Shown in pieces: positions 25,640 through 29,186 of a stretch of DNA of 56,271 bases (its first letter is position 1; each line of letters begins with the position of its first letter). Where the stretch lies: contig JAKSIB010000022.1 of the NCBI GenBank assembly GCA_024399065.1, forward strand, positions 1-56,271, read 5' to 3'. Origin of the DNA: Fibrobacter sp. (lineage in GTDB: Bacteria; Fibrobacterota; Fibrobacteria; Fibrobacterales; Fibrobacteraceae). Under the pieces are notes generated by a model. The model saw only the letters and a list, made by a program, of their open reading frames with translations, searched no databases and was not told where the DNA came from. The position numbers and the translations under genes are program-made.

Positions 25640-27019
25640 ATGAAGAACGAAAATATCTCTCTCGAAAATCTTGACCACATCAAGGGCAATCCCAAGGCCC
25701 TCCTCCCCATCGCCGTATTCCTGGTGCTTTACCTGGGCATGGGCATTTCCTTTGAATACGTCCTGAAGATTCCCATGGGGTTCTACAACATTCCCATTGT
25801 GGCAGCATTCCTGGTGGCCATCTTCGTCGCTTGCATCCAGAATCGCAAACTGAATTTCGACAAGAAGATGAACGTGATGGCAGGCGCCATCGGCGACCGC
25901 AACATCTTCCTCATGATTCTGGTATTCCTCTGCGCAGGCATCTTCGCGGGAATCCTGGGGCGTTCAAGTGCAAGCGCTGCCGCCTACCTCTTGCTGGATT
26001 TCATCCCGGCGCAGTTTGCAGTTGTCGTCTTGTTTGTCGTGGCCGCCTTCGTCTCTACCGCCATGGGAACTTCCGTAGGTACCATCGCGGTGGTTTCGCC
26101 CATCGCCATTGAAGTTGCAGGCGCCGCAGGATTCGGCATTCCTTTCTGCGTCGCTTCCGTTATTGGCGGCGCCATGTTCGGCGACAACCTTTCGTTCATT
26201 TCCGATACGACAATCGCAGCCACCTCCACACAGGGCTGCGCCATGAAGGACAAGTTCCGCGTGAACTTCGGAATTGCCCTTCCCGCAGCCATCGCCGCGG
26301 TAATAATCATCGCATTGATTTCCTTCGCCACAGACGCCCACGAAGTCGTTGCTGCCGATTACAATCTGGTGCAGCTCATCCCCTACGTGTTGGTACTGGT
26401 TCTCGCACTCACCGGCATTAACGTTTTTACCGTATTGCTGGTGGGCATTGTCGCCGCAGCCATCATCATGGTAGGGAGCGGTGAACTTGATTTCGTCGGA
26501 CTTCTGGGACACATCGGCAACGGTATTTCCGGAATGTACGAAACCATCATGGTGGCCGTTCTCGTAAGCGCTCTCTGCGGCCTCATCCGCATTCACGGCG
26601 GTTTCGCTGCGCTTCTGGATTTCATCCACAAGGTCTTTAAAGGCCACAAGAGCGGTCAGCTGGGCGTAGGCCTCTTGGTAAGCGCTATGGACGTGGCTAC
26701 CGCAAACAACACCGTGGCTATCGTCATGGCAGCTCCCATCGCAAAGCAGATGGGCGACGAATACAGAATCTCCCCGCAGAAGACCGCTTCCCTCCTGGAT
26801 ATTTTCGGATGTATCGTGCAAGGCCTGCTCCCCTATGGCGCACAGATGCTGGTGGCACTTTCTGCCATCGCTACCGCAAGCGCCGCCGCAGTAGCCAACG
26901 GTGCCGAAGCCGTAAACGTCAGCGCCTTCGACATCATTCCCTACATGTTCTATCCCTTCCTCCTCCTGGTCAGCGTACTGATCTTCATCGCTGTCTCGCC
27001 CAAGAGAAAGAAAGCATAA
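25640..27019 (+). CDS. NhaC-type Na+/H+ antiporter family protein
   Basis: The 459-residue protein has about 11 hydrophobic segments and family marks STAMGTSVGTIAVVSPIAIE, GGAMFGDNLSFISDTTIAAT and ATANNTVAIVMAAPIAKQMG. NhaC-type proteins exchange sodium or organic ions for protons at the inner membrane. The start is the ATG at 25640. It follows the MBL gene by 39 bases and ends before a strong terminator. Confidence 0.87.
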   Translation: MKNENISLENLDHIKGNPKALLPIAVFLVLYLGMGISFEYVLKIPMGFYNIPIVAAFLVAIFVACIQNRKLNFDKKMNVMAGAIGDRNIFLMILVFLCAGIFAGILGRSSASAAAYLLLDFIPAQFAVVVLFVVAAFVSTAMGTSVGTIAVVSPIAIEVAGAAGFGIPFCVASVIGGAMFGDNLSFISDTTIAATSTQGCAMKDKFRVNFGIALPAAIAAVIIIALISFATDAHEVVAADYNLVQLIPYVLVLVLALTGINVFTVLLVGIVAAAIIMVGSGELDFVGLLGHIGNGISGMYETIMVAVLVSALCGLIRIHGGFAALLDFIHKVFKGHKSGQLGVGLLVSAMDVATANNTVAIVMAAPIAKQMGDEYRISPQKTASLLDIFGCIVQGLLPYGAQMLVALSAIATASAAAVANGAEAVNVSAFDIIPYMFYPFLLLVSVLIFIAVSPKRKKA

Positions 27020-27075: not shown

Positions 27076-27112
27076 TAAAGCGTAGCTACTCAAGGTAGTT
27101 ACGCTTTTTTAT
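27076..27112. terminator. Terminator between nhaC-like and outer-membrane genes
   Basis: A stem AAAGCGTAgCTAC/GTAGtTACGCTTT with T6 on the right and A-rich sequence on the left can serve both converging genes. Confidence 0.85.
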
Positions 27113-27140: not shown

Positions 27141-27761
27141 TTACTTATGCATGGCAACAAAATTGAGGCCAATGGTATAGCCGCTCATGTCTCTCAAAGA
27201 ACCACGCAGGAAAGAGTCATCATCAAACGGATACATATGATAATCAAAGGTGGCTTCTACACCAAGATCAATGATTTTGGTAATAGACCAGGTGTGACCA
27301 ACTTTAAGACCCATGTTAAGGCGCCATTCGTCGTCAAGGTAGTTGATCTTGGAAGTTCCCACTTCATATTCATCTGCACCAAATTCAACGCCAACGAAAG
27401 CGCCCTTCAATGCAGATGCCTGATCGAAAGGAAAGCCCATGCAACCAATGTGGAAACCAGTTGCAAAGTAGTCTACATCCTTTGTGCCAATATCGAGATC
27501 CATATCGCCACCACCAACAGAAATGTCGGCACCAAGATAAGCTTGAACACGGTGGGAGAAACTCATACCTGCGTCTATGCCAAAGGATGCTGCAGCGTTA
27601 TCAGCACTGACCTTGCCGCCATAAGCGGACATCTTACCTTCAACAGAATTATATGCAGCGCCAGCACTGCCCTTAAGGAACAAACTATTGGATGACTCGG
27701 CAAAAGCCGCCTGAGATAGAGCAGCAAGGGATACTGCGAAAATTGAAAATGCCTTTTTCAT
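27141..27761 (-). CDS. Outer-membrane beta-barrel protein
   Basis: The 206-residue protein has a signal peptide (MKKAFSIFAVSLAALSQAAF, cut near AFAES) and alternating strands such as GAFVGVEFGADEYEV and TWSITKIIDLGVEATFDYHM. It ends in YTIGLNFVAMHK. It looks like a small barrel of the OmpW/OmpX size class without a recognised family. The ATG follows AAAGGAGGAAAT, the strongest ribosome binding site in this part of the window. Confidence 0.72.
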   Translation of the reverse strand: MKKAFSIFAVSLAALSQAAFAESSNSLFLKGSAGAAYNSVEGKMSAYGGKVSADNAAASFGIDAGMSFSHRVQAYLGADISVGGGDMDLDIGTKDVDYFATGFHIGCMGFPFDQASALKGAFVGVEFGADEYEVGTSKINYLDDEWRLNMGLKVGHTWSITKIIDLGVEATFDYHMYPFDDDSFLRGSLRDMSGYTIGLNFVAMHK

Positions 27762-27892
27762 ATTTCCTCCTTTGTCCTCAAAAAGTACAAAAAACTTACG
27801 CAGAATAGTTGTTTTTGAGAATATTTCAATTTTTTTTGTTCAAAAAAGTCTCCAAAGTTCCACATTGGAATAGTGATTTAGCGGTCCGGGTC

Positions 27893-27921
27893 TTGACCGC
27901 AGGCACTTGGAGCCGTATATT
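27893..27921 (+). promoter_or_regulatory. Promoter of a candidate small RNA
   Basis: A -35 box TTGACC (27893-27898) and a -10 box TATATT (27916-27921) are 17 bp apart on the plus strand. No start codon with a ribosome binding site follows. Confidence 0.7.
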
Positions 27922-27927
27922 ATTGAC

Positions 27928-28012
27928 ATAGACCGGATGTAAACCGGAACGCGGGCCTACGGGCACTGCAACAATAGAAATGGGTCGGCCCTTCGGCGCC
28001 GACCCGTTTTTT
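27928..28012 (+). ncRNA. Candidate small RNA of about 85 nt
   Basis: A near-consensus promoter and a strong terminator enclose about 85 bases with no credible reading frame. The stretch can fold into short hairpins (ACCGG-7 nt-CCGGA, a GC-rich GCGGGCC/GGGC element) before the terminator stem. Neighbouring genes on both sides lie on the minus strand, so this is a free-standing plus-strand unit. I could not match it to 6S RNA, SRP RNA or tmRNA. Confidence 0.62.
27982..28012 (+). terminator. Terminator of the candidate small RNA
   Basis: The stem GGGTCGGC/GCCGACCC (27982-27989 with 27998-28005) with a TTCG-containing loop runs into T6. No matching T-run exists on the other side, so it works for the plus strand only. 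Confidence 0.88.
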
Positions 28013-28032
28013 ATACCCGCGATAAAAGCAGA

Positions 28033-29010
28033 TTATTTTTTCTTGCGTTCTTTCTTGACTGCGTCTACAGCAGCTTTAAGAGCTTCCTTCTCGGCAGCCT
28101 TCTCCTCTGGAGTAGGCTTGGTATCTTCAAGAAGGCGATCAGCCCATTCGTCCCAGAAGCGGCAGCGTTCACCGTCCAGCTTCATCTTGGCGAACTTGAC
28201 AGGTTCCGTTTCTACCGCCAGCGTCACCACAGATTCCTTGTAAGCCTGCGGGAGGCCAGTAACGTGAGCCATACGCTGCTTCAGTTCTGCAACGGTAGCA
28301 TCCAGGATTTCAACATCAAAACGACGCTGGATATAACGGCGGGTGATGAAACCCATGGACATGAAGTAGTCGCCTTGATTGCCTTCGGCAAGGTAATTGC
28401 GGACGCGCAAATCCTTAAGTGCCAGCACCGCTTCCTCATAAGGAGGCAAGCGCGGGGCTTCACCCGGCTTACGGAATTTCTTGTGCAGGAGCCAGCCCAG
28501 AAGAACCAGCACAACACCACCCAAGACACACAGGGCAATAATCAGCCACTGAGGCAGACGGGGATCGGCCATAGGTTCTTCAACATCGAGAATATCATCT
28601 TCTTCGCCGGTGGTGCGGTTTGCAACCTTCACGGCAACCGGGTCGGTACTTGTCTTGACGGTATCCTTGTCCACAATGGCCACAATCTGCTGCGGAGCAA
28701 TCATGAAGTCGCCACTGACAAAAGTATTGAGAGTTGCCTGCCAAGTGAACTTTGCGGTACCCTTGGGCATACCTTCAGTAACGCGTTCATTCTTCATTTC
28801 CTTGACTTCGAAACTGCCAAGGTTACCCACAAAACTGGGCAAGTCCACAATGGCATTTTCGGGTGCGGTCACGGCGATTTCATAATTGAACATGTCGCCG
28901 ATAAAAACCTGAGCGTTATCTACGTTAGCCTTGACACTTACGTCAAAGGCAAATGCCGGCAGCGCACAAACGGCAGCCAAAACACACAAGCGAGAAAAAA
29001 ACTTATTCAT
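28033..29010 (-). CDS. BatD-like protein (one membrane anchor)
   Basis: The 325-residue protein has a signal peptide ending ALPAFAF, an N-terminal beta-sandwich typical of BatD proteins (VDNAQVFIGDMFNYEIAVTA), a transmembrane helix near residues 185-206 (LIIALCVLGGVVLVLLGWLL) and a cytoplasmic helical tail. The tail (YEEAVLALKDLRVRNYLAEG, YIQRRFDVEILDATVAELKQ) resembles DUF4381-type ends of Bat-operon proteins. Bat proteins act with MoxR ATPases in the envelope, but no MoxR or BatA/B gene is in this window. The ATG at 29010 lacks a Shine-Dalgarno and is about 9 bases after a TATATT box, so the leader is very short. Confidence 0.68.
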   Translation of the reverse strand: MNKFFSRLCVLAAVCALPAFAFDVSVKANVDNAQVFIGDMFNYEIAVTAPENAIVDLPSFVGNLGSFEVKEMKNERVTEGMPKGTAKFTWQATLNTFVSGDFMIAPQQIVAIVDKDTVKTSTDPVAVKVANRTTGEEDDILDVEEPMADPRLPQWLIIALCVLGGVVLVLLGWLLHKKFRKPGEAPRLPPYEEAVLALKDLRVRNYLAEGNQGDYFMSMGFITRRYIQRRFDVEILDATVAELKQRMAHVTGLPQAYKESVVTLAVETEPVKFAKMKLDGERCRFWDEWADRLLEDTKPTPEEKAAEKEALKAAVDAVKKERKKK

Positions 29011-29026
29011 ACAGGAGAGAATATAC

Positions 29027-29186
29027 AAAAAGGCGAGAGCAGCGACAAAAACATATATGTTTTTGGCATTGCCGAGCCGAAGTATATGCATGCGAAGCAT
29101 GCAATATCAAAAAAGGCGAGAGCAGTGGCCAAGTTTACTTGGACATTGCCGAGCCGAATGTATAGCGCATGAAATGCGCCATATAC
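29027..29186. repeat. Tandem pair of hairpin repeat units
   Basis: Two units of about 80 bp each have the fixed parts AAAAGGCGAGAGCAG and CATTGCCGAGCCGAA, with variable but perfectly self-complementary hairpins between them. Hairpin bases change on both arms together between units (a CAAAAACAT palindrome versus CCAAGT/ACTTGG; GCATGC/GCATGC versus GCGCAT/ATGCGC). The unit next to the BatD-like gene also provides its -35/-10 region. Confidence 0.75.

What the first reader, a model, noticed from the sequence alone, without database searches (positions are those of the whole stretch)
27893..28012. Free-standing candidate small RNA with consensus promoter and strong terminator
A TTGACC-N17-TATATT promoter and a GC-rich, TTCG-loop terminator frame about 85 bases without a reading frame, and both neighbours are on the other strand. 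It does not resemble 6S, SRP or tmRNA as far as I can see.
Basis: partly seen in the sequence, partly recalled or inferred. Interest (0 to 1): 0.6.

Follow-up and report, generated by a model that had tools for sequence, protein, structure and literature searches.

The report
Conserved Fibrobacter small RNA gene
This is very probably a real, free-standing gene for an ~85-base regulatory RNA that no database lists; it is kept in one branch of the gut bacterium Fibrobacter and appears to be switched by a regulatory protein (PadR type) that controls several genes, though what the RNA acts on is still unknown.

Summary
TTGACC-N17-TATATT (27893-27921), about 85 nt without an ORF, and a UUCG-capped terminator (ending 28012) lie between two minus-strand genes. 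The promoter match alone is no better than chance. Comparative evidence decides it: the block occurs beside the same batD-like gene in six Fibrobacter genomes of one clade. Its 5' segment ACATAGACCGGATGTWAACCGGAACGC is 25-26/26 identical to homologues whose neighbouring batD gene is only 41-55% identical at four-fold sites. All five distinct RNAs fold alone into the same three-hairpin shape. Rfam has no match; there is no conserved ORF and no adjacent gene it could lead into.

The unit starts further upstream than reported. An operator-like palindrome TTCCA-N3-TGGAA (27858-27870) sits exactly 52 bp before the -10 in all five loci. TATTCCANNNTGGAATA occurs in all 80 genus genomes examined, almost never in the reversed control, and stands before the padR gene in 30 of 30 orthologues. 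The sRNA is therefore probably a member of an autoregulated PadR regulon, whose other sites precede hpf, spoT, rbsD and EAL genes. CsrA and Hfq are not detected. Targets are unknown. New sRNA family of a known kind; no transcript evidence.

The parts
27856..27872 (.). predicted PadR operator AGTTCCACATTGGAATA (palindrome TTCCA-CAT-TGGAA at 27858-27870)
   Evidence: conserved exactly 52 bp (centre to -10) upstream in all 5 distinct loci; best match to the operator in the window; 22 matches to TTCCANNNTGGAATA in own genome against 0 control
27893..27898 (+). -35 hexamer TTGACC
   Evidence: identical in 4 of 5 distinct loci, TTGCGT in G105
27916..27921 (+). -10 hexamer TATATT
   Evidence: invariant within GTATATTAT in all loci
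27928..28012 (+). sRNA (start inferred from the -10; about 85 nt)
27926..27951 (+). near-invariant 5' segment with hairpin H1 (CCGG-AUGUWAA-CCGG)
   Evidence: 25-26 of 26 identical to G000 in every homologue
27951..27969 (+). hairpin H2, GC-rich stem with UACG tetraloop (UGCG, UUCG, CACG in homologues)
   Evidence: same fold in 5 sequences; two pairs with changes on both sides, not significant in shuffles
27977..28012 (+). intrinsic terminator with UUCG loop and U tract
   Evidence: also kept without the RNA body at the same place in G054 and G009
27141..27761 (-). divergent neighbour, outer-membrane beta-barrel-like protein (not part of the unit; other carriers read have other genes here)
   Evidence: PF13505 below its cut-off
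28033..29100 (-). convergent neighbour, BatD-like protein (syntenic marker)
   Evidence: PF13584 slightly below its cut-off

Best explanation
27893-28012 is a stand-alone gene for a ~85-nt noncoding RNA, transcribed on + from a sigma-70-type promoter and ended by an intrinsic terminator. (Shown by conservation and folding; transcription itself is inferred.) Transcription is controlled by an autoregulated PadR-family protein binding the palindrome at 27856-27872, whose place near -64 suggests activation from upstream. (Operator conservation shown; the protein-DNA contact and its sign are inferred.) The RNA then acts in trans through its near-invariant 5' segment AUAGACCGGAUGUWAACCGGAACGC, most likely by short loop-initiated pairing with mRNAs without Hfq, with H2 and the terminator as stabilising ends. 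(Inferred; targets unknown.)
For: Homologues in G025, G024, G036, G040 and G105, all near the batD-like gene. Promoter, body and terminator are conserved: 5' segment 25-26/26 identical while batD four-fold sites are 41-55% identical. All five RNAs fold alike; z -4.3. A 1-nt indel in H2 and absence of a shared ORF speak against coding. Exact genome-collection hits are Fibrobacter only. Carriers fall in one clade with support 92. The operator is at constant distance in all loci; 80/80 genomes have the motif with about no control matches; it is upstream of padR in 30/30 orthologues. In G000, spacings from palindrome to the nearest -10-like hexamer include 40, 50, 52, 62 and 82 bp, roughly helical phasing.
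Against: No transcript data. Covariation is not significant with five sequences. The 10-nt complement of the H1 segment is rare (11 matches outside the sRNA gene in five genomes, control 66) with no evident shared target, and a duplex scan of window and regulon start regions found nothing convincing, so base pairing is unproven. The operator copy in this genome has 2 mismatches to TATTCCANNNTGGAATA, and the one in G024 is degenerate. PadR proteins are mostly repressors (own knowledge). Four of ten genomes in the clade lack the RNA, so it is dispensable.
Confidence: 0.72

Rival explanations
1. The RNA works by binding a protein (titration or assembly) through the repeated CCGGA of H1 rather than by pairing with mRNAs.
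For: Both arms and most of the loop of H1 are invariant; two CCGGA copies; perfect complements are rare and not evidently shared.
Against: The best-known partner of GGA motifs, CsrA, is not detected in this genome; the GG of each motif lies in a stem rather than in a loop.
Confidence: 0.25
2. Only the terminator is functional: it ends batD and/or the + strand gene upstream, and promoter and RNA body are incidental.
For: G054 and G009 keep the terminator at this place without promoter and body.
Against: The 5' segment and -10, not needed for termination, are the best conserved parts; in G024, G036 and G105 the terminator is hundreds of bases from batD.
Confidence: 0.07
3. Leader, attenuator or riboswitch of a downstream gene (weak Thr_leader match).
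For: Thr_leader RF00506 at 33.4 bits, E 1e-4, in a small search.
Against: Below the gathering score of 55; absent from the homologues and from the body alone; the next gene downstream is on the opposite strand in the window.
Confidence: 0.02
4. The RNA is antisense to the 3' end of the batD mRNA and regulates it in cis.
For: Convergent arrangement 20 bp from the batD stop in the window.
Against: In G024, G036 and G105 some 300-1350 bp of other DNA lie between them while the RNA is conserved.
Confidence: 0.04
5. It encodes a small protein.
For: The near-invariant segment contains ATG.
Against: ATG is followed at once by TAA in G000, G036 and G040; frames differ between homologues and H2 carries a 1-nt indel.
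Confidence: 0.02

Closest known systems
Bacterial intergenic trans-acting sRNAs with own promoter and Rho-independent terminator (general class)
   Same: size, own promoter, intrinsic terminator, no ORF, transcription-factor site upstream
   Different: no Rfam family matches; Hfq is not detected in this genome; targets unknown
CsrB/RsmZ-type protein-titrating RNAs
   Same: repeated GGA within a hairpin
   Different: only two motifs, not exposed in loops; CsrA not detected
6S RNA (RF00013)
   Same: free-standing noncoding RNA gene
   Different: no long hairpin with central bubble; about 85 nt; no RF00013 match anywhere in the genome
PadR-family regulons (for example cdPadR1 of Clostridioides difficile, PMC5050560)
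   Same: autoregulation through an inverted repeat just upstream of the own gene, and many further motif copies in the genome
   Different: half-sites here TATTCCA/TGGAATA with N3; an sRNA among the putative targets; no paper found linking PadR to an sRNA promoter in the held library

Membership tests
Bacterial small regulatory RNA (general kind) | own promoter conserved with the RNA | tested here: met
   -10 invariant, -35 in 4 of 5
Bacterial small regulatory RNA (general kind) | intrinsic terminator at the 3' end | tested here: met
Bacterial small regulatory RNA (general kind) | no conserved reading frame | tested here: met
Bacterial small regulatory RNA (general kind) | a discrete transcript exists | not testable with these tools
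   no expression data
Bacterial small regulatory RNA (general kind) | regulates target genes | tested here: inconclusive
   no convincing target
Hfq-dependent sRNA | Hfq encoded in the genome | tested here: not met
   PF17209 no match, control genomes ring
CsrB/RsmZ-like titrating RNA | CsrA encoded in the genome | tested here: not met
6S RNA | match to the RF00013 covariance model | tested here: not met
Thr_leader (RF00506) | gathering score 55 bits | tested here: not met
   one search gives 33.4 bits; none in homologues
Any Rfam 15 family | match at gathering score | tested here: not met
PadR regulon of Fibrobacter (defined here) | operator TATTCCANNNTGGAATA near the promoter | tested here: met
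   palindrome core TTCCA-N3-TGGAA in 4 of 5 loci with 2 mismatches in the outer bases here, degenerate in G024
PadR regulon of Fibrobacter (defined here) | PadR binds the site and changes transcription | not testable with these tools
   needs EMSA and expression data

The most novel reading that the evidence does not exclude
A clade-specific sRNA is the noncoding arm of a genus-wide, autoregulated PadR regulon that also includes ribosome hibernation (hpf) and (p)ppGpp (spoT) genes, and it acts through an invariant CCGGAUGUWAACCGG hairpin in a bacterium without detected Hfq or CsrA, through a mode not yet described.
Probability: 0.3. Interest if true: 0.62.

Novelty: new member of a known kind. 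Interest (0 to 1): 0.5.

Why it matters
Few sRNAs are annotated in the whole Fibrobacteres-Chlorobi-Bacteroidetes group (16 in the table of PMC9029176). This gives a defined, testable sRNA gene in a fibre-degrading gut genus, with boundaries, a conserved motif, and a predicted regulator with a genome-wide operator. The PadR operator itself allows a global regulon of Fibrobacter to be tested directly.

Tried and rejected
Rfam at gathering score and at relaxed E-value: only a Thr_leader match that disappears in homologues. 6S: not in the genome. CsrA and Hfq as partners: not detected. The weaker model matches that were read out in other genomes (about 22-33 bits) share only a terminator hairpin. 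Target search by perfect 10-nt complement and by duplex energy against start regions of window and regulon genes: nothing convincing. Viral contigs, phages, plasmids: no match. An inverted repeat around the -35 (perfect in G024 and G036 with one compensatory change) was considered as part of a longer RNA; it is not kept in G000 or G105, so it was not adopted.

Full report
What was checked. The window is contig C22 of a Fibrobacter-like genome, G000; exact matches of the RNA in the genome collection are Fibrobacter MAGs from horse faeces. TTGACC (27893-27898), 17 nt, TATATT (27916-27921), and a GC-rich hairpin with UUCG loop followed by TTTTTT ending at 28012 are present as described. Neighbours are on the minus strand. 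The promoter match by itself is at chance level (4 found against 3.5 in shuffles). The fold of 27920-28020 is far more stable than shuffles (z -4.3), much of it from the terminator.

Is it real? A DNA search over 100 related genomes found homologues in G025 (100%), G024 (87%), G036 (80%) and G040 (81%). A covariance model built from four distinct sequences added G105 at 106 bits. The alignment shows an invariant GTATATTAT at -10, TTGACC in four of five distinct loci, and a near-invariant ACATAGACCGGATGTWAACCGGAACGC. In 27926-27951, 25-26 of 26 bases are identical to G000 in each homologue, while four-fold degenerate sites of the neighbouring batD gene are only 41-55% identical. Sequence outside the block from the palindrome to the terminator could not be aligned well between most species. 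This is strong evidence of purifying selection on a discrete unit.

Shape. All five distinct RNAs, folded singly, give the same structure: five free bases, hairpin H1 (CCGG, loop AUGUWAA, CCGG), hairpin H2 (7-8 bp, tetraloop UACG, UGCG, UUCG or CACG), an A-rich linker, and the terminator. H2 has two adjacent pairs with changes on both sides, but with five sequences this does not exceed shuffles, so covariation is suggestive only. H1 never varies, which says nothing about pairing but implies recognition by sequence. There is no shared ORF: the ATG is followed at once by TAA in three of the five, and H2 has a 1-nt indel.

Distribution. In 75 of 80 genomes of the genus the batD-like gene is found. 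The RNA is present in 6 of 80, each time on the 3' side of batD, directly or a few hundred bases away. On a batD tree of 30 genomes all carriers fall into one clade of ten (support 92). Two non-carriers in that clade (G054, G009) keep only the terminator at the same place, which points to loss. Two others (G041, G057) have no copy but are incomplete genomes. The simplest history is one gain at the base of the clade and several losses. Nothing convincing was found in other genera of the class, in viral contigs, phages or plasmids.

The control element. In all five distinct loci a palindrome TTCCA-N3-TGGAA (one half degenerate in G024) stands exactly 52 bp upstream of the -10, centred near -64. 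In G000, TTCCANNNTGGAATA occurs 22 times by strand against 0 for the reversed pattern. TATTCCANNNTGGAATA is found in 80 of 80 genus genomes at 2-20 sites each, with essentially no control matches. One site lies between the promoter and the start of a PadR-family gene (PF03551, E 3e-14). That protein is found in 39 of 40 good genomes. In 30 of 30 orthologues read, the palindrome lies upstream of its start (29 perfect, 1 with one mismatch) although the flanks have diverged. Autoregulation through an inverted repeat is known for PadR proteins (cdPadR1, PMC5050560). The inference is that this PadR binds the palindrome and that the sRNA is in its regulon. Other sites in G000 precede hpf, spoT, rbsD, a response regulator with HD domain, EAL, patatin and trmO. 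Among 30 sites taken from other genomes, some again precede padR, hpf, response regulator-HD and the sugar transporter. Spacings from palindrome to the nearest -10-like hexamer of 40, 50, 52, 62 and 82 bp (46 for patatin) are close to steps of a helical turn, as expected for an upstream activator; the -10 assignments are by eye from hexamer matches. G105, which has lost the -35 consensus, keeps the palindrome core intact. The sign of regulation remains inferred.

Mechanism. CsrA and Hfq are not detected in this 99%-complete genome, so CsrB-like titration of CsrA and Hfq-assisted pairing are disfavoured. The 10-nt complement of the H1 segment is rare in five carrier genomes (11 sites outside the gene, 66 for the reversed pattern) and absent elsewhere in G024, so no target with a perfect 10-nt complement is shared by all carriers. 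A duplex scan against start regions of window and regulon genes gave no convincing outlier (best z -3.0 among 53). The preferred reading is a trans-acting riboregulator that pairs through short stretches of the 5' segment; a protein-binding RNA is the main rival.

Known kinds. Rfam has no family at threshold. The weak Thr_leader match is not repeated in homologues or for the body alone. It works like an ordinary intergenic sRNA and is filed as a new family of that kind, with the transcript itself still to be shown.

Noticed in passing
G000 whole genome; L119-L138; L169-L198: A genus-wide operator TATTCCAAnTTGGAATA, present before padR in 30 of 30 orthologues and before hpf, spoT, rbsD, EAL, RR-HD, patatin and trmO genes in G000: an apparently undescribed global PadR regulon of Fibrobacter.
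   Followed up: partly
L098:200-480 (G105): Downstream of the sRNA in G105 several copies of a palindromic GGTTACTAAA...TTTAGTAACC element lie between the sRNA and the batD-like gene.
   Followed up: no
L096:290-350 and L097:315-370: The sRNA terminator is retained without promoter and body at the same site in G054 and G009, next to different upstream genes.
   Followed up: yes
L100:510-560 and L101:1830-1880: Perfect 9-bp inverted repeat ACGGYTCAA...TTGARCCGT around the -35 in G024 and G036 with one compensatory change; not kept in G000 or G105.
   Followed up: partly
whole genomes of five carriers: The complement of the sRNA 5' segment (ACATCCGGTC) is about six times rarer than the same pattern reversed; could be codon bias or avoidance of off-target pairing.
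   Followed up: no
window 27077-27107: Long hairpin with T tract after the NhaC-like antiporter gene (25640-27019), a second clear terminator next to the region.
   Followed up: no
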